A program made the position numbers and the translations under genes. A DNA stretch of 27,462 bases, from contig JAGQHH010000108.1 in the NCBI GenBank assembly GCA_020431945.1, forward strand, positions 1 through 27,462. Direction: 5' to 3'. Source of the stretch: Cyanobacteria bacterium HKST-UBA02. GTDB lineage: Bacteria > Cyanobacteriota > Vampirovibrionia > Obscuribacterales > Obscuribacteraceae. Shown here piece by piece: positions 4,505 through 14,915 of this stretch (position 1 is its first letter; every line of letters starts with the position of its first letter). A model generated the notes under the pieces. It ran no database searches and was not told where the DNA came from. It worked only from the letters and a program-made list of their open reading frames with translations.

Positions 4505-5569
4505 ATGCTGATTTACAGAGTTTCGTGGCACAAACGTGGCAAAATGAGATCGAGTCAAGCAGACACGCCCGGATCCCGTACCTGGCGGGTTTTCGAAGCA
4601 TATGAGCTGAGCGCCGACCAGCGGTCCCTGGAACGCCATGGCAATCCTGTCTTTGACGCTTCTTATCTCCTGGAGGATCCTGCCTGGAAAAAGAAAGCGT
4701 TTTTCGACTACTGCAATATCGGCTCCTCCGGGGAAGCCCTGGACTATGTGAAACGCTGGGGATTCCCGGCCCAGTCACACAACGGGCTCTTCAGCCTGAC
4801 CGAGGTCCTCGAATCGGCGGCCTCCATGCGTTTTCTCGCAATGGTTTTGAGAAATGCCGGGGATCTGGCAAAAGTCGACAAATGGATCAGTGTCCGGGGA
4901 GACATACTGGACCAACTCTGGCGGCAGTGGTCCCGCCAGACGAAAGGAGCGAGCTATGCCCGATTCATGGCGGAGCTTCCGCTTCTGATGAGCTCGACAG
5001 TGAGAAAGCTTAAGACAGGCATCGACCAGGCGGAGCTCTCGGACATCGAACGTCTTGTCAAAGAAGTCTATCTCGAGACCGCACGGACAGACCGGCTCAT
5101 CTTTCACCTCGAGCCCACCAGCCAGGAAGCCGACCTCGTCTTTCCACACTATCGCGGCATCTACACCACATCTTCCCTGGGCGCGCCGGTCATGGATCAT
5201 GACGCTTCATCCATATCGATGGAGAGCCGCACCTTCGAGGACCTGCGCCAGCGCCTCGGCCAGCCCGAGCTGGTAGTCGTCAAAGAATTCGTCAGGCGGA
5301 TCCTCAACCGGATGCTCCAGGGCATCAAGCCGACTCTTTCATTCAGACAGGCAGGAAGGTCCTCGCCGGATCTCGTTCAGTCTTTCACCGTCTCCACTCC
5401 CTGGGAAGGTCTCTGTCTGGAGCTCTACGATCTGGCAGGCGGGGCCTCGAGACTGCGTCTCTGCGGCAATGAAAAATGCCGCAAGCTACTATCGCCTGCG
5501 ACCAGGCGAAAAGAACATTGCAATGCGACCTGCCGAAAAGAACACTGGCGGCAACGACAGCTACAATGA
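4505..5569 (+). CDS. CGNR/ABATE-like zinc-finger protein
   Basis: 354 residues from the ATG at 4505; an ATG at 4544 (residue 14, KMRSSQ) is equally plausible, and neither has a good ribosome site. The C-terminus has C320-G-N-E-K-C325, 13 residues, then C339-x3-C343 in a very basic context, as in CGNR zinc fingers attached to ABATE-type N-terminal domains. Such proteins are thought to be regulators, usually around 180-220 residues, so this is a long version. The N-terminal 300 residues are mostly helical and acidic, with no second recognisable domain. It ends five bases before the first gene of the small-membrane-protein group, so the two may be cotranscribed. Confidence 0.65.
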   Translation: MLIYRVSWHKRGKMRSSQADTPGSRTWRVFEAYELSADQRSLERHGNPVFDASYLLEDPAWKKKAFFDYCNIGSSGEALDYVKRWGFPAQSHNGLFSLTEVLESAASMRFLAMVLRNAGDLAKVDKWISVRGDILDQLWRQWSRQTKGASYARFMAELPLLMSSTVRKLKTGIDQAELSDIERLVKEVYLETARTDRLIFHLEPTSQEADLVFPHYRGIYTTSSLGAPVMDHDASSISMESRTFEDLRQRLGQPELVVVKEFVRRILNRMLQGIKPTLSFRQAGRSSPDLVQSFTVSTPWEGLCLELYDLAGGASRLRLCGNEKCRKLLSPATRRKEHCNATCRKEHWRQRQLQ

Positions 5570-5573
5570 TCTT

Positions 5574-5879
5574 ATGAGGATAAGAAAAGAGCCAGATCGA
5601 ATCGTTCTTTACGTGACGCTAGCCGCTATGCTAGCCGGTCTTCTGACGAACCCGCGATACGTGCTCGGAGCCTTATTCACCTTCCTTTGCATAGCTGTCG
5701 CCATGGTCCTCCCTACCGTCATCGCTTACGTAACAGCGGCGACGGGCTACTTCGCTCTATCATGGACGATCATAGGAAGCCAGCGTCTCTACGGCTTCTA
5801 CTGCCGGAACAATGTTTCCGCGGGACTCGCTACCGTTATCGTCTCCTTCACCGCCGGAGTCGCCTGGGCATGCTTGTAA
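5574..5879 (+). CDS. small RSL-type membrane protein, left group gene 1
   Basis: 101 residues from the ATG at 5574. The frame is open further left, but there it overlaps the zinc-finger gene, and MRIRKEPDRIVLYVT gives a normal short basic N-terminus. Three hydrophobic segments lie at about 10-22, 29-63 and 82-101. The C-terminus reads YCRNNVSAGLATVIVSFTAGVAWACL. This matches the signature of the paralogs in this window (polar/basic loop, G-x-A, then S-F-x-A-G), although R-S-L itself is changed to N-N-V. It is the most diverged member. Function unknown; an integral inner-membrane protein is expected. Confidence 0.6.
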   Translation: MRIRKEPDRIVLYVTLAAMLAGLLTNPRYVLGALFTFLCIAVAMVLPTVIAYVTAATGYFALSWTIIGSQRLYGFYCRNNVSAGLATVIVSFTAGVAWACL

Positions 5880-5977
5880 CCATCAGTTGGTGAAGTGTTC
5901 AGTCCATCGGCTTGCTTAGCCGTTCCCGAAGATAAAATCGGCCCGTTGGAGACTGTGTCGAAGTCGGGAGCCGGCTG

Positions 5978-6292
5978 ATGTTCAAGCGAGTTCCATTACC
6001 AGTAGTTGTTTTGATCGGGACGTTGCTTGTCTACGGAATGATGAACCCGGTCATACTTGGCGCCCTTCTTTACCTGCCAGCCGTCTTCCTGTCCGTGCTC
6101 ACCTACTTTGCCTTCTTTATTTCGATCTTCGCAGCAGCAGCGTTCATGACGTTCCACGTCTTCATGGGTGCCTGGGCGTATCTGAACAGCTTTTATCGAG
6201 CCAGCGCCCGGAGCCTCATGCTTGCCGGTGGCACATCCGCCGTCGTCGCGTTCTCCATGGGAATTCTCTACGGAGTCCTGAGCAATATGTAG
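5978..6292 (+). CDS. small RSL-type membrane protein, left group gene 2
   Basis: 104 residues, start ATG 5978 with a GGGAG ribosome site seven bases upstream. A long hydrophobic stretch fills residues 8-65, enough for two or three helices. A polar loop SFYRASARSLMLAGG follows, then a last helix VVAFSMGILYGVL. The loop carries the R-S-L-x-x-A-G signature shared with the other small membrane genes. It lies about 98 bases after gene 1. No motif outside the signature is recognisable, and no catalytic residues stand out. Confidence 0.6.
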   Translation: MFKRVPLPVVVLIGTLLVYGMMNPVILGALLYLPAVFLSVLTYFAFFISIFAAAAFMTFHVFMGAWAYLNSFYRASARSLMLAGGTSAVVAFSMGILYGVLSNM

Positions 6293-6345
6293 GACCGTAC
6301 AGCCAAACCTTGGCACTGCCCTGTCCCACATGCAATGATTGATCT

Positions 6346-6555
6346 ATGCACAGATTCAGACTCACACTGACTCTCCTCTGTCTATTCGCAGGCTTCGCCT
6401 TCGATAATTTCGATGAATTCGGTCGCCGCCTCGAAGCCTCTTTGATAAAACAGGCAGAGCTTCTGAATCAAGGAAGTTGCAGCTACAATTCAGAAACCGG
6501 CACCTATGAAAGTATTGATGGGCTGCTAATTGACACTGCGCTCCTGAGTCCATGA
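6346..6555 (+). CDS. 69-residue predicted secreted peptide
   Basis: The N-terminus MHRFRLTLTLLCLFAGFA looks like a Sec signal peptide with likely cleavage near residue 18. About 50 acidic, polar residues follow, with a single Cys at about 45 (GSCSYNSETGTYES). It does not carry the RSL signature. Its TGA overlaps the ATG of the next gene (ATGA at 6552-6555), a typical translational-coupling arrangement, which is the main reason to trust it. No ribosome site is obvious. It could be a small periplasmic partner of the membrane proteins, but no family is recognised. Confidence 0.5.
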   Translation: MHRFRLTLTLLCLFAGFAFDNFDEFGRRLEASLIKQAELLNQGSCSYNSETGTYESIDGLLIDTALLSP

Positions 6556-6893
6556 AGCATGCAAAACCGAGCCTGAAGTCATACTTGAAGCAGTGCTTTC
6601 GAACGCTGATCATTGTCCAGTCGGCTATCTATCTGCTCGCAGTCTTAATTTTTGCGATGCATGGGGATGCAGGTCTCGTCTATGGACTGCTCATATTCAT
6701 CTTTTTCGTCCCGGTCGTAGCAGCTTTCCATTGCTTGTGGCTGATTCCGTTCTATCCTATTTTCGCCATCAGCCATAGGAGCCTCAGCGTAGCGGGGACG
6801 GCTTTGACAGCGCTGTCTTTCACAGCCGGAGTTTGTACGGCAAATCTCGACAGGATTGGCCCATTGCTCTGGGGACCGCCATGGAGCCTTTGA
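6552..6893 (+). CDS. small RSL-type membrane protein, left group gene 4
   Basis: 113 residues, starting inside the stop codon of the preceding gene. A basic N-terminus (MKHAKPSLKSYLKQ) is followed by hydrophobic segments at about 18-36, 42-65 and 83-97. The C-terminal part IPFYPIFAISHRSLSVAG, then TALTALSFTAGV, is closely similar to the gene at 13993, which has LPFYPIYAAGHRSLTRAG and then MVLAALSFLAGI. It is therefore a clear member of the RSL family and the left-group counterpart of the A5/B3 gene type. Function unknown. Confidence 0.65.
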   Translation: MKHAKPSLKSYLKQCFRTLIIVQSAIYLLAVLIFAMHGDAGLVYGLLIFIFFVPVVAAFHCLWLIPFYPIFAISHRSLSVAGTALTALSFTAGVCTANLDRIGPLLWGPPWSL

Positions 6894-6943
6894 TTCGTTC
6901 CAGCTGGTACTCGAGATTCCCAAACCAAAGGCGAACGCCGCCC

Positions 6944-7171
6944 CTACTCCTTGTAGGTAGTGTTTTTGATATGCTCCCATCCGAAGTCCCCAATATACTT
7001 GGGCTCTGAAAGCCAGTGGTTAAATTTGCAAACATACTTGTCCGCCTCCCGGTCGATTTGGGAGACGATAAGGCCGGAAATGATTCCTGCAGAAAACGAT
7101 AGCGAAATGACAATAGTGGCGGAGCAGGTTCTGGCAGAACGTAGCACCCGTGCTGCAGCAGGAGAAATCAT
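6944..7171 (-). CDS. small minus-strand membrane protein, paralog of 13134-13325
   Basis: 75 residues. One hydrophobic segment, about residues 18-38, reads SATIVISLSFSAGIISGLIV, followed by a charged tail SQIDREADKYVCKFNHW. The other minus-strand gene (13134-13325) has the same plan: VVSFTFGFVSGLALSYLEEK, then a polar tail of similar length. S-F-x-A-G-I recalls the last helix of the plus-strand RSL family, but here it is near the N-terminus. The start at 7171 has no good ribosome site, so the N-terminus is uncertain. It is convergent with the left group. Confidence 0.5.
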   Translation of the reverse strand: MISPAAARVLRSARTCSATIVISLSFSAGIISGLIVSQIDREADKYVCKFNHWLSEPKYIGDFGWEHIKNTTYKE

Positions 7172-7202
7172 GGTCTAATTCCATCCGTGATTGCGTACAT
7201 AG

Positions 7203-7240
7203 ATCCATGATAAGCGCCGTGTCGCGATAGCGGAAGAGAG
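7203..7240 (+). repeat. upstream element copy E1
   Basis: ATCCATGATAAGCGCCG at 7203-7219 matches the element in front of the gene at 9002 (14 of 15 over CCATGATARGCGCCG), and both copies continue to a GGAAGAG block. Here no small membrane gene follows. The copy lies between the minus-strand gene ending its 5' side at 7171 and fabV, so it may be a remnant of a lost cassette or a regulatory site for the minus gene. Confidence 0.45.
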
Positions 7241-7307
7241 CCCAGCGCCTGAGTAACAATCTGAGAGTGCCTGTCGGCTTTGCGGGTACCTGAAAGCATG
7301 GGCGATC

Positions 7308-7313
7308 TATAAT
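7308..7313 (+). promoter_or_regulatory. -10 box for fabV
   Basis: A consensus TATAAT lies 35 bases before the chosen fabV start. No convincing -35 box is found at 16-18 bases, so the promoter may be activator-dependent or the match incidental. Confidence 0.4.
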
Positions 7314-7347
7314 TACAGCCCCTATTGAACCGTACATGGAGTCGATC

Positions 7348-8550
7348 ATGTCAAGCGAAACACCAACGGCAACTCTTATCAAACCGAGGATTCGGGGTTT
7401 TGTTTGTGTCACTTCCCACCCGGAAGGTTGCCAAGCCCACGTAGCTCAACAAATCGACTATGTCAAAGGGCAGAAGCCAATCGCAGTGCCTAAGAATGTC
7501 CTCGTGATCGGCTCGTCGACCGGCTATGGTCTGGCATCCAGAATCGTCGCCGCCGTCGCCGGCGGAGCTTCGACCCTCGGTGTTTTCTTCGAAAGAGAGC
7601 CGAGTGATGAAAAACCCGCGACAGCGGGCTGGTACAACAACCGGGCTTTTGAAAAATGGGCGAAGAAAGAAGGACTCTACGCAAGCAGTATCAATGGTGA
7701 TGCCTTCTCCTACGAGATCATGGACAAGGCAATCGAGACCATCAAGAAAGATATGGGCAGAGTCGACCTGGTTGTCTTCAGCCTGGCTTCGCCCCGAAGA
7801 ACCCATCCCGAAACCGGCGTTGTCCATAACTCCGTCCTGAAACCAATCGGAACTTCATTCACCAACAAGACCCTCGATACAGACAGAGGCATCGTCAAAG
7901 ACATCACAATCGAGCCTTGCAACGACGAGGACATCGCCGAGACCATTGCCGTCATGGGTGGCGAGCCATGGGAAATGTGGATGGACAGATTGCAAGCTGC
8001 CGGTGCTCTCGCCGATGGCGCCACCACTGTCGCTTATTCCTACATCGGGCCGGAAGTTACCTGGCCGGTCTACAAGGAAGGCACGATCGGTGCCGCCAAG
8101 GCTGACCTCGAGCGCGCTGCTGAGTGCATCACCGCCAAGCTTTCCCCGACAGGCGGACGAGCCTACGTCTCGATCAACCAGGCCATCGTCACCCAGGCAA
8201 GCTCGGCTATCCCTGTGGTGCCGCTCTACATCTCGCTGCTCTTCAAAGAACTGAAGAAGCGCGGCATCTACGAAGGAGCCATCGAGCAAATCTACAGACT
8301 CTTTGCCGAGCAAATGTTCAGCGGTAAAGAGCCCGAGCTCGATGACCGTGGTCGGCTGCGCGTCGACGATCTGGAGATGCAGGATGAAGTTCAGGCTGCC
8401 GTTGCCGAACTCTGGAAGAAAGTAACCAGTGAAAACTTGAACGAGCTCTCCGACTTCGCCAGCTACAGGACCGAATTCCTGAGACTGTTCGGTTTCGGAC
8501 TGCCCGGTGTCGACTATGAAAAGCCGGTGAACCTGTCCGAGTGGGCTTAG
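7348..8550 (+). CDS. fabV: FabV-type enoyl-ACP / trans-2-enoyl-CoA reductase
   Basis: 400 residues, the usual FabV length. It reduces trans-2-enoyl thioesters with NAD(P)H, the last step of fatty-acid elongation; the related TER enzymes act on enoyl-CoA. Counting from MSSETP, the nucleotide-binding loop [11 protein letters not shown] lies at about 55-65 and the active-site pair is Y242-x8-K251 in [11 protein letters not shown], the spacing special to FabV/TER. The N-terminus [18 protein letters not shown] and the C-terminal GVDYEKPVN are also typical. ATG 7348 is preferred over ATG 7336, because the GGAG at 7338-7341 is then a well-placed ribosome site. FabV is known to be less triclosan-sensitive than FabI. 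It stands alone among small membrane genes, with no other fab gene in the window. Confidence 0.95.
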
Positions 8551-8683
8551 GAGTCGCCTCTACTGGCTCGATAACGCAATCGATTGAGTGCCTCTGGCAG
8601 TTGTGAGTTTACTTGCATCTTCCTCATATTTGCGGAGCATAATAGAAGCATCGGGAAGACAGACGACCCAGGAGGGAACGTCA

Positions 8684-8854
8684 ATGAAACGCAATCGGAA
8701 AAGAAGCAAAACCGAACTCAATGAGCTCAAGGCAGTAAAAGAGGTGAAATCCGAAAGCCAAGATCAAGTGGTTGGAGGAAGCGCCGTTAGACAGAATAAG
8801 TTAGTCATTGGCGACGGGAAACAGGATCAGTTCGCATCTGGGCGTGGGAAGTAG
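8684..8854 (+). CDS. 56-residue hydrophilic peptide with GG motif
   Basis: The ATG at 8684 is chosen over an open upstream stretch because GGAGGG at 8671-8676 is an excellent ribosome site. The peptide starts MKRNRKRSKTELNELK, is rich in Lys, Glu and Gln, and has no membrane helix. QVVGGSA near the middle (G-G at 31-32) loosely resembles a double-glycine leader cleavage site, with V at -4, but Leu/Met at -7 is missing. No peptidase-transporter or modifying enzyme is nearby. Family not recognised. It starts 133 bases after fabV. Confidence 0.5.
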   Translation: MKRNRKRSKTELNELKAVKEVKSESQDQVVGGSAVRQNKLVIGDGKQDQFASGRGK

Positions 8855-8951
8855 AAACAACTGCATCCTCATCATATTCTTCTTTGAGCATTCCAAGGCA
8901 CTCTCATGAGCCTGGGCTCTTTCGCCGGTGTGAAGAGACTCGAGAATGACG

Positions 8952-9001
8952 GACCATGATAGGCGCCGAGCTGTAATATGGGAAGAGGAGGGCGAGAGCA
9001 G
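8952..9001 (+). repeat. upstream element copy E2 with ribosome site
   Basis: GACCATGATAGGCGCCG at 8952-8968 is followed at 8985-8997 by GAGGAGGGCGAGA. The second block recurs before the genes at 9470 and 13427 and is the Shine-Dalgarno of this gene, ten bases from the ATG at 9002. Confidence 0.55.
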
Positions 9002-9337
9002 ATGGTCCGAGTCGCCTATGTCGTTGCTTTCATACTGGGTGGAATCCTAATGGTTGCCGGCGTTGGATTGCTACTTTTTGTCGGGCCTGGTCAGGGATTC
9101 ATCGGCGACCTATCCATTCTTGGCTCTATCCCCCTTATCCTTGTCGGCACAGCCCATCTCTTAATAGGAAGCGCCTATCTATCTTTCGTTGCCTGCCGGA
9201 AACTCATCCGAGTATGTAATCAAAGTCTCGCCGTGAGCGGTATCGCCCTGTTCGCCCTATCCTTTTTCGCTGGCATTGGGACGGCGGTACTTGATTCTGC
9301 GGTGGGGAACCTCTTTGCGCAAACGAAGATACATTGA
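9002..9337 (+). CDS. small RSL-type membrane protein, cassette A gene 1
   Basis: 111 residues from the ATG at 9002. An ATG at 8978 would add GRGGREQ, but that stretch is the conserved AGGAGGG ribosome leader, which is out of frame in the paralog at 9470, so it is not coding. Hydrophobic segments lie at about 4-28, 40-63 and 79-97. The loop CRKLIRVCNQSLAVSG and helix IALFALSFFAGIGTAVL form the family signature. Its first 80 residues match the gene at 13427 (LMVAGVGLLLFVG against LLVAGVGLFFVG; GSAYLSFVACRK against GGAYLSFAICRK). The C-terminal 20 residues after the helix are unique. Function unknown. Confidence 0.65.
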   Translation: MVRVAYVVAFILGGILMVAGVGLLLFVGPGQGFIGDLSILGSIPLILVGTAHLLIGSAYLSFVACRKLIRVCNQSLAVSGIALFALSFFAGIGTAVLDSAVGNLFAQTKIH

Positions 9338-9369
9338 GCGATACGCGCTTTACGGGAGCCCGCCGTGTT

Positions 9370-9469
9370 AGGAGGAGTCTCAGTTCTCTAGTCCGCTTCG
9401 TCAGTCCATTATAAGGACGCTTCCGGCTTGACGCGGGCGTTATGATGAGAGGAGGAGGGCGAGAGAAAC
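9370..9469 (+). repeat. upstream element copy E3 with conserved leader
   Basis: The order is AGGAGGAGTC (9370-9379), GTCCATTATAAGGACG (9404-9419), CCGGCTTGACGCGGG (9423-9437) and AGGAGGAGGGCGAGA (9450-9464). The same four blocks in the same order precede the gene at 13427. The last is the ribosome site, ten bases before the ATG at 9470. Confidence 0.65.
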
Positions 9470-9739
9470 ATGATCAAATTGGGTTTCTTTTTGCTGGTTA
9501 TCGGTGCGAGCCTTCTGGTGCTCAGTTTATGTGAGCTCAACCCGGGCTCGGAATTTTCTTTTGTCGCTCTTTTGTCCGTCATATTTGCCAGCGAACTCCT
9601 CTTTCTCGGAGGAGTCCTCCTTTTGCTCGTATCCGTTCAGCAGATCCTCCGGGCGTGCGAGCGAAGCCTTTCCCTCAGCGGTCTCGCCCTCTGTGGCGTG
9701 TCCGTTATAGCCGGCGTATTCTGGTCGCTCGGACATTGA
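9470..9739 (+). CDS. small RSL-type membrane protein, cassette A gene 2
   Basis: 89 residues with a strong AGGAGGAGGG ribosome site. Two hydrophobic segments (about 3-21 and 29-52) precede the loop QQILRACERSLSLSG and last helix LALCGVSVIAGVFWSLGH. The final 23 residues are nearly identical to the end of the gene at 13427 (LALCSISAIAGLLWSLGH). The following junction to gene 3 is also conserved with cassette B: CATTGACGCCG, then GCAC, CAAGG and GAGATGAAGAA. It starts 132 bases after gene 1, the longest gap inside the cassette, so it may have its own promoter. Confidence 0.65.
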   Translation: MIKLGFFLLVIGASLLVLSLCELNPGSEFSFVALLSVIFASELLFLGGVLLLLVSVQQILRACERSLSLSGLALCGVSVIAGVFWSLGH

Positions 9740-9784
9740 CGCCGATAAAAATATAGAAGCACAGCTCTTTCAAGGTGGGGCGAG

Positions 9785-10072
9785 ATGAAGAAAAGTCAGA
9801 CATTTCGCGACTGCCTTAAATCGCTCGCTGGGGGTATCGTTTGCTTCGCGCTCGGCTACTGCGTAGCAATGGAAAGCAACGGGGAGTTCAACGCACTGAT
9901 GTTCCTTGGCATTGCTTTGTGTATGGCAGCAACGACCTTCTTTGTCTCCATTCCGGTTTTGATCATCATTGGATTCGGCAGAAAGGGTCTGGCAATTGGC
10001 GGCCTTGCGCTCTGCTTCTTTTCCATAGTTGCTGGCATAATATGGCCGCTCGGGCCGCCGGGAGTAGAATAG
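9785..10072 (+). CDS. small RSL-type membrane protein, cassette A gene 3
   Basis: 95 residues, start ATG 9785 behind GGTGGGG (9774-9780). The basic N-terminus MKKSQTFRD is shared with the gene at 13773 (MKKSKLARN). Hydrophobic segments lie at about 14-28, 36-63 and 70-88. The signature loop is diverged (GFGRKGLAIGG in place of R-S-L-x3-G) and is followed by LALCFFSIVAGIIWPLG. The stop lies four bases before the next start, consistent with a polycistronic unit with genes 4-6. Function unknown. Confidence 0.62.
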   Translation: MKKSQTFRDCLKSLAGGIVCFALGYCVAMESNGEFNALMFLGIALCMAATTFFVSIPVLIIIGFGRKGLAIGGLALCFFSIVAGIIWPLGPPGVE

Positions 10073-10076
10073 GGAC

Positions 10077-10346
10077 ATGGACAAGATGAAGAGCTTTCTA
10101 TGCTACGTAGGGATTTCATGGCTGATCGGGCTTTGCTACTTCTTTGTCACAGGGTTCTACTACTTTCGGCACAATCCGCCTGATGGGTTGTGCATCCTTC
10201 TCTTTGCGGCAAGCGTTTTTGCCGGGCTCATGCTCTGGCTCTATCCCGTCTTTGCGGCAAGCCGTCGCAGCCTCCGTCACGCTGGACTGGCGGTAGCCAT
10301 GGCCTCTTTTGGCTTCGGGGTTCTTTGGTCCATGTGGCGGTGTTGA
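10077..10346 (+). CDS. small RSL-type membrane protein, cassette A gene 4
   Basis: 89 residues; an in-frame ATG at 10086 (MKSFL) is an alternative start. Hydrophobic segments lie at about 8-26 and 36-57. The loop LYPVFAASRRSLRHAGLA is the clearest form of the signature and is followed by VAMASFGFGVLWSMWRC. The DNA encoding ASRRSLRHAGLA is almost identical to that of the gene at 13773. The gap to gene 3 is four bases and to gene 5 four bases, so translation is probably coupled. Confidence 0.62.
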   Translation: MDKMKSFLCYVGISWLIGLCYFFVTGFYYFRHNPPDGLCILLFAASVFAGLMLWLYPVFAASRRSLRHAGLAVAMASFGFGVLWSMWRC

Positions 10347-10350
10347 TGGC

Positions 10351-10596
10351 ATGAGTAAAAAGAACAGTGCGAGCTGCAGCCTAATCAACCGGCATGACAT
10401 TTTTTTTCAAGGCGACCATCCAAACATTTTTCAGTTTGTCTGGATAGTCTTCCTGCATTTCATCGGGTTCGCTACGCTCGCGCTCTATTCCGTCTTCCTG
10501 GCTGGATACCGAAGCCTGGCCCACGGCGGCTCTGCCGTCGCCGCTCTGGCCTTTCTTGCAGGCATCATAACGGCTATGCTGGTGACTTGGGAGTGA
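10351..10596 (+). CDS. small RSL-type membrane protein, cassette A gene 5
   Basis: 81 residues from the ATG at 10351. The start MSKKNSAS parallels MSRKDSAS of the gene at 13993, and both follow a CGGTGTTGATGG junction. One hydrophobic segment lies at about 27-50, then the loop YSVFLAGYRSLAHGG and last helix SAVAALAFLAGIITAML. It is 40 residues shorter than its B counterpart because the first hydrophobic region is reduced to one helix; an internal deletion is likely. Function unknown. Confidence 0.6.
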   Translation: MSKKNSASCSLINRHDIFFQGDHPNIFQFVWIVFLHFIGFATLALYSVFLAGYRSLAHGGSAVAALAFLAGIITAMLVTWE

Positions 10597-10601
10597 CGGA
10601 C

Positions 10602-10838
10602 ATGGAGAAGGATGCTCTCAACGGCTGGACACCCGAGCAAACCAGATGGTCAAACCTGGTAGCAGCCACTCTAGTTCTTTGTATGGCAGCCTACCTTGCA
10701 TGGTCAGGACTTCCCAACGTCGCACTATTTTTTATCGGTGTCGCAGCATCGCTCTTTTGTAGAACATTTTTCCACTTGAGCCTTGTCTTTATCCTCATGT
10801 CCGCTGGAATCGGTTTCATAGTTGGACTGCCCTCTTGA
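10602..10838 (+). CDS. small membrane protein, cassette A gene 6
   Basis: 78 residues from ATG 10602; a TTG at 10587 overlaps gene 5 and is less likely, since the paralog at 14361 starts at the equivalent ATG. It begins MEKDALNGWTPEQTRW, then hydrophobic segments VAATLVLCMAAYLAW, NVALFFIGVAASLF and LVFILMSAGIGFIVGL. It has no R-S-L, only a faint R-T-F-F-H-L-S-L before an A-G-I helix. Its counterpart at 14361 has exactly the same length (78) and shares ATLVLC, so this is a separate subtype that closes each cassette. Confidence 0.6.
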   Translation: MEKDALNGWTPEQTRWSNLVAATLVLCMAAYLAWSGLPNVALFFIGVAASLFCRTFFHLSLVFILMSAGIGFIVGLPS

Positions 10839-10855
10839 GTCGTCCTTCTCGACTC
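10837..10855 (+). terminator. hairpin at end of cassette A
   Basis: GAGTCG-TCCTTCT-CGACTC forms a 6-bp stem overlapping the gene 6 stop codon. No T-run follows, so it may be a Rho-dependent end, an RNA stabiliser or incidental. Confidence 0.3.
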
Positions 10856-11148
10856 CAGGCACAATCACCTCACCCAATTCAAAAACAACGCTACGCAAAA
10901 ACTACCCGCACGAGACCGCAGCCGACTGCGACACCGGCAAGGCACCACCAGTAGCGCCATTCGCGTCAACGTGGAGCGGTGGCGAGGGCTATTAAAACGC
11001 CTCGTCCCTTTGGTAGTGCCTCCGAGTCCCGTGTTTGTCCGGGCTCGATCCGCTGCCACTGCCCGTTTGACGTCCTGCATATTGTATTGCCGCTGTAATC
11101 GGTGGGAGTCGTTTGCTCCTTGAAACGCCACAGGCTGGGGGGCTTGCT
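10839..11148. other. non-coding stretch between cassette A and abiEi
   Basis: No supported gene. The segment 10942-10959 (GCACCACCAGTAGCGCCA) matches 14631-14648 downstream of cassette B at 17 of 18 positions, so part of this region is the duplicated cassette end. A minus-strand frame (10966-11151, 61 codons) starts right at the operator arm but has no ribosome site or recognisable content. Confidence 0.5.
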
Positions 11149-11185
11149 CATTTGTTAGATATTATGATAGTATTTCTAACAAATG
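11149..11185. promoter_or_regulatory. inverted-repeat operator/promoter of abiEi-abiEii
   Basis: Perfect 11-bp arms, CATTTGTTAGA (11149-11159) and TCTAACAAATG (11175-11185), flank a 15-base spacer that contains a TATGAT -10 box (11163-11168). The right arm runs into the GGAGGA ribosome site of abiEi. AbiEi antitoxins are known to repress their own promoters through inverted repeats, so this fits autoregulation. The -35 is not obvious. Confidence 0.7.
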
Positions 11186-11198
11186 GAGGACGAGTTCC

Positions 11199-11810
11199 AT
11201 GAAAACAGCCGCAGCCATTAGAAAGAAGATCGAATCACTGCCCCTTGGGCAGCCCTTTGCCGTAACAGAACTCCTTCACCTCGGGACACGAGCAGCAGTA
11301 GACCAAGAGCTCTACCGGCTAACCAAGTCCGGAGAGATCTCCCGGGTATGCCGTGGCGTATATGTAAAGCCAGAAGAAAATAGGTATGTAGGGAAGATGA
11401 TGCCGAGCGTCCAGGAAGTCGCTAAGACCAAAGCTAACGCGCTTGGGGTGAAGATTGGCATAAGCGGAGCGGAGGCTGCGAACCAGATGGGCTTTACGAC
11501 ACAGGTGCCGATGGTGCCCGTGTTCTACACAAATGGGAACCCCGCCAGCTTTAAAATTGGCAATCTGCCGGTCAGATTCAAGAAGGTTCATCCTAAGCAG
11601 CTGCAGCACGCGGGGACACGCCTGGGAACAGCGATAGCGGCCTTGTGGTACCTCGGGGAAGAGAACGCGAATGAAGAAGCTATATCTCGAATAGAGCAGC
11701 AGCTCTCCGAAGAAGAGTTCCATCAACTCCTTAAGTCAGCCGGCACACTGCCAGGATGGCTGGCCAGCAGGCTTTATCTGTACGGGAAAGGAGATCAGCA
11801 CGTTGCCTGA
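11199..11810 (+). CDS. abiEi: AbiEi-type antitoxin / DUF6088 transcriptional regulator
   Basis: 203 residues. The N-terminal winged-helix part (about 1-60) has the family pattern FAVTELLHLGTRAAVDQELY, then LTKSGEISRVCRGVYVKPE. The middle part (IGISGAEAANQMGFTTQVP, then VFYTNGNP) is typical of DUF6088/AbiEi proteins. AbiEi is the antitoxin and repressor of type IV AbiE systems, in which it counters the toxin without direct binding. A GGAGGA site lies ten bases before the ATG. It overlaps the toxin gene by eight bases. This region looks more A/T-rich than its neighbours, suggesting transfer. It is placed between the two duplicated cassettes. Confidence 0.85.
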   Translation: MKTAAAIRKKIESLPLGQPFAVTELLHLGTRAAVDQELYRLTKSGEISRVCRGVYVKPEENRYVGKMMPSVQEVAKTKANALGVKIGISGAEAANQMGFTTQVPMVPVFYTNGNPASFKIGNLPVRFKKVHPKQLQHAGTRLGTAIAALWYLGEENANEEAISRIEQQLSEEEFHQLLKSAGTLPGWLASRLYLYGKGDQHVA

Positions 11811-12816
11811 CGACTTTTTCCACCTGGATGCAAGCGACCGCCGCGCAATCTTGAACGATGCGGCGCAAAGACTTGGAAGGATTCCGCGGGTTCTAGAAAA
11901 GGATGTATGGGTCTGTTGGGCGCTCAACCACCTGTTCTCGATACAAGATAGAAGGCAAATGGCGTTCAAAGGAGGAACATCGCTTTCGAAGGTATATGGC
12001 GTTATTGATAGGTTCTCGGAAGACGTTGATGTCACAGTGGACTTTCAAGAGTCGGCACCCGGAGGGGAGCCCAACCGCTCGCAGGGAAAGAACTTCCGAA
12101 ATATGGCAGAGAAGGGAGTTCAAGAATTCATCGAGACAAGAGTAATTCCCGTGCTTCAGAAAGAAGTCGACAAGCTCATCAATCATTCGCCGGTGATCTT
12201 GTACGAGAGAGCCGATGCATCTCTGACCGTGAAATACAAGACGGCACTTGACGAGCCAGGTACGGGCTATCTGGAAGACAAAGTCATGATCGAGTTTGGC
12301 GGGCGAAATCCAACAAATCCAAAGTCGCGACATCGAGTTGAAGCATATATCTCAAATTTCTACCCCGAAGTTTTGTTCCCTTCTGCGGACGTAGATGTGC
12401 TAGCAGCAGAGCGAACCTTTTGGGAGAAGGTGACCCTGATTCATGCAGCGATATCAAAAGGCAGGCTTGAGTCAAAAAAGAACCTACAATTTCGACACTG
12501 GCTCGATGTCTACGCTATGTCCAATACTGGCGTCTACACTCGAGCTCGCGCAGACATAGATCTGCTCCGCCGCGTCGCTGAGTACAAGAGGGTATTCTTC
12601 CCGTCCAAGGGAGTTGACTACACAGATTGCCTGACTGGCAAACTTCGACTGGCAGCAAGCTTGGAGAGTATGGTCAGAGAGATGGAGTCGGACTACAACA
12701 GCATAGGGGAAATGTACCCAGCCAATCCGCCGCTATTCTCGGACGTCCTATCCGCTATGGCAGAGCTCGAAAGCGAGATCAATAAGGCGGTCATGGATCA
12801 TCAGTCGGATGACTAA
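11803..12816 (+). CDS. abiEii: AbiEii-type nucleotidyltransferase toxin
   Basis: 337 residues starting at TTG 11803, inside the antitoxin gene, with AAGGAG about nine bases upstream; no in-frame ATG lies near enough to replace it. The nucleotidyltransferase signature is clear: KGGTSLSK at 56-63, then R70-FSEDVDV with D75 and D77 as likely metal ligands. The downstream VMIEFGGRNPTNP and RTFWEKVTLIHA are typical of the AbiEii/AbiGii family. Family members act as reversible growth-arrest toxins or phage-abortive factors by modifying RNA or nucleotides. The target here is not deducible. Length is normal and all key motifs are present, so it should be active. Confidence 0.88.
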   Translation: MPDDFFHLDASDRRAILNDAAQRLGRIPRVLEKDVWVCWALNHLFSIQDRRQMAFKGGTSLSKVYGVIDRFSEDVDVTVDFQESAPGGEPNRSQGKNFRNMAEKGVQEFIETRVIPVLQKEVDKLINHSPVILYERADASLTVKYKTALDEPGTGYLEDKVMIEFGGRNPTNPKSRHRVEAYISNFYPEVLFPSADVDVLAAERTFWEKVTLIHAAISKGRLESKKNLQFRHWLDVYAMSNTGVYTRARADIDLLRRVAEYKRVFFPSKGVDYTDCLTGKLRLAASLESMVREMESDYNSIGEMYPANPPLFSDVLSAMAELESEINKAVMDHQSDD

Positions 12817-12825
12817 GCAAGTCAT

Positions 12826-13071
12826 CTAGCTGAGAGTCTCGATTTCGCAGTCCTCCATCTCGAAGACCCGGGCACCACCGTTCGAGCGCATTTGAAGAAC
12901 TCGAAAGTTCCTCGCGGTTGGAGTCCCGACCAACCTAACCGCCACGGCTTCATTTGGATCAAAGCACGAGAGACAGAGAATCTGCTGGTTGTAATCACCC
13001 GCGGGCAGGCTGATCTCATACGATCCATTCTCTAGGCGAGCCATTTGTTCGGGCAGGATATCGACGTACAT
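12826..13071 (-). CDS. 81-residue protein of unknown function
   Basis: Start ATG 13071 behind an AGGAGG site at normal spacing. The product (MYVDILPEQMARLENGSYEI...) is soluble and predicted mainly beta, with acidic ends and three Cys (33, 36 and about 75) that include C-L-S-C. No family is recognised. It is convergent with abiEii (nine-base gap) and lies downstream of the minus-strand membrane gene at 13134. An overlapping minus-strand frame gives an Arg/Ser-rich product without a ribosome site, so it was not chosen. Confidence 0.55.
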   Translation of the reverse strand: MYVDILPEQMARLENGSYEISLPAGDYNQQILCLSCFDPNEAVAVRLVGTPTARNFRVLQMRSNGGARVFEMEDCEIETLS

Positions 13072-13133
13072 GGGAACAGGTCCTCCTTCGGGCGCTCAGT
13101 CATCTTACTACCCCTCGTAGGAGGTGTCAACGA

Positions 13134-13325
13134 TCACTCGTCGGCTTCATGTAATCTGATTATGCGGGGGTCTTCGTTCCCGATCAGCCGCAACACCGCA
13201 TCGTAGCACTTGTTTCCGCCCGAGCCGAACGAACGCATCTTCTCTTCGAGATATGACAGGGCGAGCCCCGAGACAAATCCGAAGGTAAACGAGACTACAA
13301 GCAGAACGGAAGCAGTACGGATCAT
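13134..13325 (-). CDS. small minus-strand membrane protein, paralog of 6944-7171
   Basis: 63 residues: MIRTAS, one helix VLLVVSFTFGFVSGLALSYL (about 7-26), then a charged C-terminal tail with K-C-Y-D-A-V. It resembles the minus-strand gene at 6944-7171 in size, orientation and the S-F-x-x-G-x-x-S-G-L helix followed by acidic/basic residues. The ribosome site is weak (AGGGAC). It is divergent from cassette B gene 1 (101 bases from the GTG), with element E4 between them, much as the other copy has element E1 at its 5' side. Confidence 0.5.
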   Translation of the reverse strand: MIRTASVLLVVSFTFGFVSGLALSYLEEKMRSFGSGGNKCYDAVLRLIGNEDPRIIRLHEADE

Positions 13326-13342
13326 GGCGCGGTCCCTGTGGC

Positions 13343-13426
13343 AGGAGGAGTCGTCATCCGTCCATTTTAAGGCCGGTCGTCCGGCTTGACGCGGGAGGTA
13401 AAATGAGAAGAGGAGGAGGGCGAGAA
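13343..13426 (+). repeat. upstream element copy E4 with conserved leader
   Basis: Four blocks in the same order as at 9370-9469: AGGAGGAGTC (13343-13352), GTCCATTTTAAGGCCG (13360-13375), CCGGCTTGACGCGGG (13381-13395) and AGGAGGAGGGCGAGA (13411-13425). The second and third blocks also form a GCCGG-TCGT-CCGGC hairpin. The last block is the ribosome site of the GTG start at 13427. Confidence 0.65.
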
Positions 13427-13729
13427 GTGGTCCGAATCGGTTTCATCGTCGTTTCTACGCTGGGCTTCATCTTGCTCGTTGCCGGCGTGGGGCTTTTCTT
13501 TGTGGGGGTCCTTCAGCCTGAGTTCAACATAATCTCTCTATTTGGAATACTAGGCTCTTTCCCCCTGATCGTTCTCGGCGTAGCTCTGCTCTTCCTTGGA
13601 GGCGCCTACTTGTCCTTCGCTATCTGCCGAAAATTTTACCGAACATGCAAACGCAGCCTAGCTATGAGCGGTCTCGCCCTCTGCAGCATATCCGCTATTG
13701 CCGGTCTGCTCTGGTCGCTCGGGCATTGA
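13427..13729 (+). CDS. small RSL-type membrane protein, cassette B gene 1 (A1/A2 chimera)
   Basis: 100 residues from GTG 13427. An ATG at 13403 is in frame, but the stretch between is the conserved AGGAGGAGGG leader, out of frame in the paralog at 9470, and GTG aligns with the ATG at 9002. The first about 75 residues follow A gene 1 (VRIGFIVV, LLVAGVGLFFVG, GGAYLSFAICRK). From RSLAMSG onward the protein and its DNA follow A gene 2 (LALCSISAIAGLLWSLGH and the same downstream junction). It therefore looks like a fusion of the two neighbours made near the RSL signature. Two or three helices precede the loop. Function unknown. Confidence 0.65.
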   Translation: MVRIGFIVVSTLGFILLVAGVGLFFVGVLQPEFNIISLFGILGSFPLIVLGVALLFLGGAYLSFAICRKFYRTCKRSLAMSGLALCSISAIAGLLWSLGH

Positions 13730-13772
13730 CGCCGGGATTAGAATAGATGCACGCCTCGAGCAAGGAGACGAG

Positions 13773-13988
13773 ATGAAGAAGAGCAAGTTGGCTCGCAACG
13801 GCGTGATTCTTTTGGTTAGCGGCGCTACTCTCCTGTTCGCCTGCTGGCTAAACTCGCACCTGATGTTTAGATCCCTGTTCGATCCGCTTACGGCAAGCCG
13901 CCGCAGCCTCCGTCATGCTGGACTAGCAATCGTCATTTGGTCCTTCCTTGCTGGCATGGCGACCGCTCTTATGAGCGTCCGGTGTTGA
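13773..13988 (+). CDS. small RSL-type membrane protein, cassette B gene 2 (A3/A4 chimera)
   Basis: 71 residues from ATG 13773 with AAGGAG (13762-13767) upstream. An open stretch further left belongs to gene 1 in another frame. The N-terminus MKKSKLARN and its 5' leader follow A gene 3. The C-terminus TASRRSLRHAGLA follows A gene 4, and its DNA is almost identical over about 36 bases. One long hydrophobic stretch and the last helix remain, so it has lost one helix compared with either parent. It ends four bases before gene 3, like the A4-A5 junction. Confidence 0.62.
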   Translation: MKKSKLARNGVILLVSGATLLFACWLNSHLMFRSLFDPLTASRRSLRHAGLAIVIWSFLAGMATALMSVRC

Positions 13989-13992
13989 TGGA

Positions 13993-14358
13993 ATGAGCAG
14001 GAAGGACAGCGCGAGCTTCGGTAGTTATGCCCGACAAGTAATGCGGGCGATGAGTCGACTGTTTGGATTCTTGTTTCTCATTTCCTTGTTTTATTCGATT
14101 GTGACTTTCATCTCTAGATGGCTTGTCTGGGGAAGCTGGCAACCGTCTTGCACGATTTCGCTAATGGTCGCGGTGCAAATTCTTCTTACCTATCTTATTC
14201 TCTTCGCGGCTCTGACCATCGGTACCTCTACTCTTCTTTTGCCCTTCTATCCCATCTATGCAGCCGGGCACCGAAGCCTCACCCGTGCCGGTATGGTCCT
14301 CGCCGCCCTGTCATTTCTAGCGGGCATCGTAACCTCTATGATGGGAGCCTGGGGGTGA
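13993..14358 (+). CDS. small RSL-type membrane protein, cassette B gene 3
   Basis: 121 residues, the longest member. The start MSRKDSASFGSYARQ parallels A gene 5. Hydrophobic segments lie at about 23-42, 53-85 and 100-116. The end TLLLPFYPIYAAGHRSLTRAG followed by MVLAALSFLAGIVTSMM is the best match to the left-group gene at 6552. It thus links all three groups as one family. Gaps of four and two bases to its neighbours indicate one transcript. Confidence 0.65.
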   Translation: MSRKDSASFGSYARQVMRAMSRLFGFLFLISLFYSIVTFISRWLVWGSWQPSCTISLMVAVQILLTYLILFAALTIGTSTLLLPFYPIYAAGHRSLTRAGMVLAALSFLAGIVTSMMGAWG

Positions 14359-14360
14359 CG

Positions 14361-14597
14361 ATGGAGAAAGTCAACACGCCCAAACGAACCAGCCCGCCAG
14401 ATCCCATAACTGACCTCTGGCAGCACTATCCTTGGGCTACGGCGACTCTCGTACTTTGTATCGGTGTCATTCTTACGTGGCGTGGTAATTTTTGCGCTGC
14501 TCTAGTCCTCATCGGCATCGTGGTGGCACAGTTCTTTAGGTCCTTTCTCCAAACCGCATGTTGTTTCTGGAGAGCAGAGATGGCGTGCAAGTATTAG
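14361..14597 (+). CDS. small membrane protein, cassette B gene 4
   Basis: 78 residues from ATG 14361, two bases after gene 3. It is the counterpart of A gene 6: both start MEK, both are 78 long and both have ATLVLC at the first helix. The C-terminal 15 residues (TACCFWRAEMACKY) replace the hydrophobic A-G-I helix of A gene 6, so the last helix is lost. No single frameshift restores it in the bases shown. It may be decaying or diverged. Function unknown. Confidence 0.5.
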   Translation: MEKVNTPKRTSPPDPITDLWQHYPWATATLVLCIGVILTWRGNFCAALVLIGIVVAQFFRSFLQTACCFWRAEMACKY

Positions 14598-14630
14598 GGC
14601 GTGAAGAATGGGTGCCCAGTGAGAAGCTAA

Positions 14631-14838: not shown

Positions 14839-14915
14839 TGGGGCAAGCGAGGGGAATCGAACCCCCGAATGCTGGAACCACAATCCAGTGCCTTAACCTC
14901 TTGGCTACGCCTGCC
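14839..14915 (-). tRNA. tRNA-His (anticodon GTG)
   Basis: 77 bases fold as a full cloverleaf. The anticodon loop TTGTGGT is closed by CTGGA/TCCAG, giving anticodon GTG. The T arm is GGGGGTTCGAATCCCCT-like with the invariant TTCGAAT. The 5' end carries the extra G(-1) opposite C73, the known identity element of tRNA-His, and CCA is encoded (TGG at 14839-14841 on the plus strand). No mismatch disturbs the acceptor stem apart from one G-T pair. Confidence 0.97.

What the first reader, a model, noticed from the sequence alone, without database searches (positions are those of the whole stretch)
5574..14597. Family of about eleven tandem tiny membrane proteins with a shared RSL signature
Seen: plus-strand genes of 71-121 residues end in a polar loop with R-S-L-x3-G followed by a small-residue-rich helix containing S-F-x-A-G (clear at 6552, 9002, 9470, 10077, 10351, 13427, 13773 and 13993; diverged at 5574, 5978 and 9785). 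They have strong ribosome sites and gaps of only a few bases. Known: I can match the signature to no family. Inference: an expanding membrane system, possibly envelope stress, immunity-type or oligomeric. The repeated pattern of short helices plus a conserved basic loop suggests subunits of one heteromeric complex.
Basis: partly seen in the sequence, partly recalled or inferred. Interest (0 to 1): 0.8.

Follow-up and report, generated by a model that had tools for sequence, protein, structure and literature searches.

The report
New family of tiny membrane proteins
A little-studied bacterium carries a tandem, duplicating family of tiny membrane proteins that share one end but differ in the middle; they match no family we could find, and their job is unknown.

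Summary
They share a basic loop plus last helix, R-S-L-x3-G-x-A-x4-S-F-x-A-G; two glycines are invariant in 28 of 28 rows. No Pfam or PHROG family fits. All six named relatives carry one locus-tag prefix, Candidatus Obscuribacterales.

New here: (1) subtypes in the order A-B-C form a cassette, twice in the window and once, by locus tags, in that relative; (2) in five of six subtypes with full-length relatives the C-terminal block is better conserved than the middle; (3) gene 10351 is a mosaic of C-type ends and a B-type middle. An AbiE toxin-antitoxin pair lies between the cassettes.

Best reading: inner-membrane subunits with a constant assembly module and an exchangeable outward-facing module, acting as hetero-oligomers. 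Family, cassette and one mosaic are shown; topology is predicted; oligomerisation and any recognition or immunity role are inferred. No DNA of a relative could be fetched.

The parts
5574..5879 (+). Divergent family member (RNN instead of RSL), 4 bases after gene 4505-5569
   Evidence: External HMM E 1.5e-4; leave-one-out 17.2 bits, 0 of 2000 shuffles reach it
5978..6292 (+). Subtype D member
   Evidence: External HMM E 9.1e-23; relatives P0010 and P0013
6552..6893 (+). Family member, overlaps small ORF 6346-6555 by 4 bases
   Evidence: External HMM E 2.5e-12; overlap
9002..9337 (+). Subtype A1 member
   Evidence: External HMM E 8.1e-28; relatives P0004, P0005, group about 80% alike
9398..9464 (+). 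Leader of cassette 1, repeated at 13354-13425 (81% identity)
   Evidence: blastn and listing; repeat D6
9470..9739 (+). Cassette 1, subtype A3
   Evidence: External HMM E 5.9e-22; relatives P0018, P0020
9785..10072 (+). Cassette 1, A-like member
   Evidence: External HMM E 8.8e-20; P0002 95% identical
10077..10346 (+). Cassette 1, subtype B
   Evidence: External HMM E 1.1e-19; relatives P0009, P0011, P0012
10351..10596 (+). Cassette 1, subtype C ends with a B-type middle (mosaic)
   Evidence: External HMM E 1.7e-9; middle scores 76 to P0009, next best 25
10602..10838 (+). Cassette 1, last gene: small membrane protein outside the RSL family, paralogue of 14361
   Evidence: 40% identity over 42 aa with 14361; not among the family HMM hits
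11199..11810 (+). AbiEi-like antitoxin (DUF6088), between the cassettes; not part of the family
   Evidence: PF19570 5.3e-33; PADLOC AbiEi 7.8e-61
11803..12816 (+). AbiEii nucleotidyltransferase toxin, between the cassettes; not part of the family
   Evidence: PF08843 1.4e-32; PADLOC AbiEii 4.7e-87
13354..13425 (+). Leader of cassette 2, copy of 9398-9464
13427..13729 (+). Cassette 2, subtype A2 (GTG start; in-frame ATG at 13403)
   Evidence: External HMM E 1.4e-29; P0015 73% identical
13773..13988 (+). Cassette 2, subtype B2, shortened: full B2 tail, first part weakly A-like
   Evidence: External HMM E 1.5e-10; tail matches P0026; DNA repeats D7 and D3
13993..14358 (+). Cassette 2, subtype C
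   Evidence: External HMM E 2.4e-13; relatives P0023-P0025, P0027
14361..14597 (+). Cassette 2, last gene: paralogue of 10602, outside the RSL family
   Evidence: family HMM 1.9 bits only
6944..7171 (-). Doubtful distant relative: single helix plus soluble tail
   Evidence: Family HMM only E 0.2; 33% identity over 33 aa to 13134-13325 minus
13134..13325 (-). Doubtful distant relative: single helix plus soluble tail, divergent from cassette 2
   Evidence: Family HMM 2.0 bits, E 8.4

Best explanation
A paralogous family, so far seen only in one lineage, of inner-membrane proteins, typically with three helices and a cytosolic basic loop (R-S-L) before the last helix. Each protein joins a constant C-terminal module (basic loop plus a last helix with a stripe of small residues, suited to helix packing) to a variable middle (outer loop and second helix). 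Subtypes A, B and C are encoded side by side as a cassette that duplicates as a block and can swap its variable middle. Inferred: the constant modules assemble A, B and C into a hetero-oligomer in the membrane, and the variable parts set what each assembly contacts on the outer face. Shown: homology, cassette order, constant/variable split in most subtypes, one clear mosaic, constraint between paralogues. Predicted from sequence: topology. Not shown: co-transcription, oligomerisation, ligand, phenotype.
For: Family. Cassette: the window has 9470(A)-9785(A-like)-10077(B)-10351(C) and 13427(A)-13773(B2)-13993(C), with gaps of 4 bases from 9785 on and between 13773 and 13993; the relative has AB7W16_01780(C)-01785(A)-01790(B2)-01795(C), taken as neighbours because the tags step by five. 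P0011 (B), P0016 (A) and P0023 (C) all list 2386 bp as longest contig, so probably sit together (inference). Constant/variable, C block against middle identity in %: A2 69/53, A3 75/49, B 88/43, C 84/46, D 85/35. Mosaic: middle of 10351 scores 76 to B-type P0009, next best of the other 27 is 25, 0 of 500 shuffles reach 76, while its first 8 residues match C types. Topology: three hydrophobic segments in 7 of 11 window and 16 of 18 external proteins; among these the R-S-L loop is net positive in 7 of 7 and 15 of 16. Constraint: 12 family pairs and the pair 10602/14361 were tried; dS was computable in 8 of 12 and in the extra pair, dN below dS in all nine; third codon positions differ most in 13 of 13.
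Against: A1 (9002) shows no constant/variable split (middle 82, C block 80), and B2 cannot be judged because 13773 is shortened. AlphaFold2 models are only fair (pTM 0.55 and 0.45) and draw helix 2, loop and helix 3 as one unbroken helix of 65-68 residues, which does not show the proposed hairpin. Hydropathy gives two or four segments in 4 of 11 window members, and 13773 does not fit the positive-inside rule. Codon usage does not single out these frames: for several an alternative frame scores as high or higher (9002 -0.12 against 0.10). Four of 12 family pairs have saturated dS and others are near saturation. A repeated gene order can come from block duplication alone. The second genome is a single assembly. 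No interaction or expression data.
Confidence: 0.4

Rival explanations
1. Immunity or self-protection repertoire: each small membrane protein neutralises a membrane-acting bacteriocin or toxin of siblings, and duplication plus exchange of the middle tracks changing toxins. It would work like the inner-membrane immunity proteins of pore-forming colicins (recalled, not tested).
For: Tandem expansion, variable middle predicted to face outward, mosaic, small size, neighbouring AbiE pair, small ORFs nearby: 6346-6555 with one hydrophobic stretch and 8684-8854 without.
Against: No toxin other than AbiEii, and no bacteriocin or export gene, was recognised among the ORFs scanned; no immunity family among the Pfam hits of 21 sequences. 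The conserved cytosolic loop is not explained by toxin binding from outside.
Confidence: 0.2
2. Fixed accessory subunits of a larger membrane machine (transporter or respiratory complex), with the middle diverging because it faces lipid and is weakly constrained.
For: Mostly three-helix proteins; weak, non-significant profile similarity to the SdhC cytochrome b556 subunit (E 0.62 and 0.88); dN/dS between paralogues about 0.15-0.57.
Against: No core subunit of such a machine was recognised among the neighbours scanned; these include FabV, AbiE and FeoB. Copy number and shuffling are unusual for fixed subunits (inference). No PDB fold match with E at or below 0.001.
Confidence: 0.2
3. Weakly constrained, short-lived duplicates with no important role, kept by chance in a recombining region.
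For: Some copies look reduced: 13773 lacks a helix, P0019 loses the motif after RSL, 14361 does not align with 10602 at its end. Codon usage is undistinguished.
Against: Two glycines invariant in 28 of 28 rows; well-kept relatives in other records, such as P0002 95%, P0015 73%, the A1 group about 80%; dN below dS between paralogues.
Confidence: 0.12
4. Membrane-disrupting small toxins (type I-like) or holin-like proteins.
For: Small hydrophobic proteins beside a toxin-antitoxin pair; a stray Ldr_toxin match for 10351 below cut-off.
Against: The Ldr match covers 13 residues, 15.7 bits against a cut-off of 27; best PHROG E 0.0067 and at most 2 of 21 members on one family; no tblastn match of P0005 in phages or P0009 in phages and plasmids. 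Long basic loop and multi-gene operons are not typical of type I toxins (recalled).
Confidence: 0.08

Closest known systems
Immunity proteins of pore-forming colicins (recalled; E1 type)
   Same: About 110 aa, few membrane helices, specificity set in the membrane (recalled)
   Different: No such family among the Pfam hits; here many tandem copies with a constant C-terminal module and no toxin gene recognised
Small multidrug resistance and other paired small transporters (recalled)
   Same: Short paralogous membrane proteins encoded side by side and able to form hetero-oligomers (recalled)
   Different: Usually four helices and a recognised Pfam family (recalled); no such family hit here
PF20134 DUF6524
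   Same: Weak match of 9470 over residues 5-85 (E 0.0025, 18 bits against cut-off 27)
   Different: Only 1 of 21 sequences matches at E 0.1, so not a member
SdhC, succinate dehydrogenase cytochrome b556 subunit
   Same: Family profile aligns over positions 12-96 at E 0.62
   Different: Not significant; no Sdh gene among the ORFs I scanned

Membership tests
Any Pfam, NCBIfam, PADLOC or PHROG family | Score above the curated cut-off, or several members hitting one family | tested here: not met
   Pfam on all 11 and on 21 sequences (best-shared family matched by 2); NCBIfam and PADLOC on 4 of 11 members, none; PHROGs on 21 sequences, best 0.0067
DUF6524 (PF20134) | Above 27 bits | tested here: not met
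   18 bits, 9470 only
Colicin-type membrane immunity proteins | Sequence match to a Pfam immunity family | tested here: not met
   Nine families listed at E 0.1 for 21 sequences, none an immunity family
Colicin-type membrane immunity proteins | Adjacent cognate toxin | tested here: inconclusive
   Only AbiEii, with its own antitoxin, was recognised among the ORFs scanned; a short peptide toxin would escape these scans
Colicin-type membrane immunity proteins | Protection against a membrane-acting toxin | not testable with these tools
   Needs an experiment
Small multidrug resistance-like hetero-oligomer | Physical hetero-oligomer | not testable with these tools
   Only single-chain models were made
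Genomic island at a tRNA gene | Duplicated tRNA 3' part flanking the array | tested here: inconclusive
   A 24-base stretch of tRNA-His occurs once in the window with up to 3 mismatches; the window may not reach the other end

The most novel reading that the evidence does not exclude
A combinatorial membrane repertoire: constant assembly modules (RSL loop and last helix) of three kinds, A, B and C, are fitted by recombination with exchangeable outward-facing modules, so that one cassette encodes a hetero-oligomer whose outer specificity is renewed by shuffling, for recognition of rival toxins, phages or ligands.
Probability: 0.17. Interest if true: 0.75.

Novelty: new variant of a known kind. 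Interest (0 to 1): 0.47.

Why it matters
Obscuribacterales belong to the non-photosynthetic relatives of the cyanobacteria (abstract beginnings) and are mostly known from assemblies (recalled). A recombining multi-gene family of mostly three-helix proteins that no library searched here describes would be a new protein family there. If the constant/variable split reflects assembly plus recognition, it would be a membrane analogue of modular immunity repertoires, and co-purification would test it directly.

Tried and rejected
Whole genome of the window: not held. So no genomic context or DNA of a relative was obtained. Blastn of 9002-14600 against plasmids matched 7 records, in the AbiEii part only. 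Viral scans with P0005 and with subtype alignments A8, A9 and A4 gave no relatives. A scan for a leader stretch gave 14 viral stretches; the family HMM on all 23 fetched loci gave nothing better than E 0.64, so I take them as chance. The phylum of the Dehalococcoidia locus (Chloroflexota by inference): 0 of 201 genomes matched, with no positive control in that set, so it shows little.

The protein searches scored only the candidates sharing most words (7995 and 7992), so relatives may be missed. P0019 was dropped from the block alignment and the tree because its end departs after RSL; P0016 was trimmed to its likely start; 5574 was not in the structure alignments. The tree is poorly resolved (3 of 25 inner branches starred) and long branches meet; it separates the A types from the rest at 87/96 only.

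A tRNA-His integration site was considered and not supported. Structure search: no PDB match with E at or below 0.001 for either model; the top rows for 13427, E 0.73 and above, are mostly long helices of other proteins. Promoter-like matches (5) did not exceed shuffles (mean 6.0).

Papers: searches (20 of 40 listed; 0 papers; 10 of 152 listed; 0 papers) were seen as listings and abstract beginnings; none listed describes such a family. No paper was opened. That is not proof that it is unpublished.
Full report
WHAT IS THERE. No whole genome is held for the window. The protein from 9785 is 95% identical to P0002, named by NCBI as from a Candidatus Obscuribacterales bacterium. The three protein searches returned 27 distinct proteins; 9 are the window's own and 18 external. 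Of the 18, 6 bear names, all with the tag prefix AB7W16_ and that organism name; 12 are unnamed. So the host is very probably of that order, and the family is so far seen only there, with the caution that most relatives carry no taxonomy and that two of the three searches scored only a capped set of candidates.

Eleven plus-strand genes (5574, 5978, 6552, 9002, 9470, 9785, 10077, 10351, 13427, 13773, 13993) code for 71-121 aa. A profile made only from the 18 external proteins was run against all 378 six-frame segments of at least 40 aa. It ranked exactly these 11 first (E 1.4e-29 to 1.5e-4); the twelfth had E 0.2. The externals were found with queries made from the window, so this is not fully independent, but the gap to every other frame is wide. 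Leaving out each member in turn, a profile of the other ten C-terminal blocks scored the member above all 2000 shuffles of it in 11 of 11 cases.

THE MOTIF. Over 28 rows (11 window, 17 external; P0019 left out) the L of RSL is kept in 27, R in 23, S in 23, the G four after L in 28, the S of S-F-x-A-G in 24, F in 19, A in 21 and the final G in 28. Positions +6, +10, +13, +17 and +21 from the R are mostly small residues, which would lie on one side of a helix; a packing surface is an inference.

TOPOLOGY. Hydropathy gives three segments in 7 of 11 window and 16 of 18 external proteins; among these the loop with RSL is net positive in 7 of 7 and 15 of 16. By the positive-inside rule this puts the N-terminus and the RSL loop in the cytosol and the C-terminus outside. 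The other window members gave two segments (6552, 10351, 13773) or four (5978). AlphaFold2 gave moderate models that run helix 2, loop and helix 3 together, so the hairpin is not confirmed by structure. Foldseek against the PDB gave nothing at or below 0.001.

CASSETTES. Cassette 1: 9470(A)-9785(A-like)-10077(B)-10351(C)-10602. Cassette 2: 13427(A)-13773(B2)-13993(C)-14361. Six DNA pieces at 67-81% identity join 8973-10609 to 13354-14368, among them the leader of the A gene (9398-9464 against 13354-13425) and the B-C junction (10252-10375 against 13888-14017); one piece joins gene 9002 to 13427, so 13427 resembles 9002 in its body and 9470 in leader and end (also repeats D1, D3, D5, D6, D7). 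In the relative, the tags AB7W16_01780, 01785, 01790 and 01795 are C, A, B2 and C; I read them as neighbours because such tags step by five. The over-long start called for P0016 reads YGKRRARE just before its likely start; the window's leader TATGGGAAGAGGAGGGCGAGAG reads YGKRRAR in that frame, so the leader is probably kept there too, though no DNA of it was seen. The last genes 10602 and 14361 are paralogues of each other, not of the RSL family.

CONSTANT AND VARIABLE PARTS. Within subtypes, percent identity of the first 18 columns, the middle and the C block was: A2 50, 53, 69; A3 70, 49, 75; B 69, 43, 88; C 82, 46, 84; D 85, 35, 85; A1 80, 82, 80 is the exception; B2 (two sequences, one shortened) cannot be judged. 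The C block has no gaps in 6 of 7 groups. Gene 10351 has the start and end of C types, but residues 10-43 score 76 to B-type P0009 and only 25 to the next best of all members (0 of 500 shuffles reach 76). I read this as exchange of a middle module. Gene 13773 has the B2 tail almost identical to P0026, its first part resembles A types more weakly (1 to 6 of 500 shuffles reach its top scores), and its first bases repeat those of 9785.

SELECTION. Twelve family pairs and the pair 10602/14361 were compared. dS could be computed for 8 of 12 and for the extra pair, with dN below dS in all nine (for example 9002/13427 0.39/0.89; 9470/13427 0.41/1.48; 10351/13993 0.34/0.95); four were saturated; third positions differ most in 13 of 13. 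Codon usage was tested and is uninformative: several true frames do not outscore the alternatives. Selection between genomes could not be measured without DNA of relatives.

KNOWN FAMILIES. None of the 11 reached a Pfam cut-off; over 21 sequences (two of them the doubtful minus-strand ORFs) Pfam and PHROG matches were sporadic. NCBIfam and PADLOC were run on 4 of the 11 and hit none of those. tblastn of P0005 against phages and of P0009 against phages and plasmids found nothing. Four viral contig scans found no relative. A profile search of PDB sequences gave only SdhC at E 0.62 and 0.88. In 201 genomes of another phylum there were no matches, a weak negative.

MECHANISM. The best reading is membrane subunits that assemble through the constant module and differ through the outward module. 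Assembly, partners and purpose are inferred. The chief rival, an immunity repertoire, could be the purpose of such assemblies; nothing found here proves a toxin partner. The AbiEi/AbiEii pair between the cassettes is a complete pair of its own kind and may only mark a region open to insertion.

VERDICT. A genuine family that none of the libraries searched describes, with an unusual modular and cassette organisation, in a poorly known lineage; function open.

Noticed in passing
window 11199-12816 (+): Complete AbiEi (DUF6088)/AbiEii type IV toxin-antitoxin pair lies between the two duplicated cassettes.
   Followed up: partly
window 8684-8854 (+): 56-aa basic ORF with a strong ribosome site and a V-V-G-G-S stretch; could be a peptide precursor (idea recalled; no Pfam match at E 1).
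   Followed up: partly
window 6346-6555 (+): 69-aa ORF with one N-terminal hydrophobic stretch, overlapping the start of family gene 6552 by 4 bases; may be an exported partner.
   Followed up: partly
window 12826-13071 (-): 81-aa acidic soluble ORF with an AGGAGG ribosome site on the minus strand between AbiE and cassette 2; no Pfam match at E 1.
   Followed up: partly
window 6944-7171 (-) and 13134-13325 (-): Two minus-strand ORFs with one helix like the family's last helix plus a soluble tail; 33% identity over 33 aa to each other, not significant to the family profile.
   Followed up: partly
window 4505-5569 (+): 354-aa protein with a C-terminal cysteine pattern like a CGNR zinc finger (recalled; no Pfam match at E 1), 4 bases upstream of 5574.
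   Followed up: partly
window 14839-14914 (-): tRNA-His with its 3' end facing the array; a 24-base stretch of it has no second copy in the window.
   Followed up: yes
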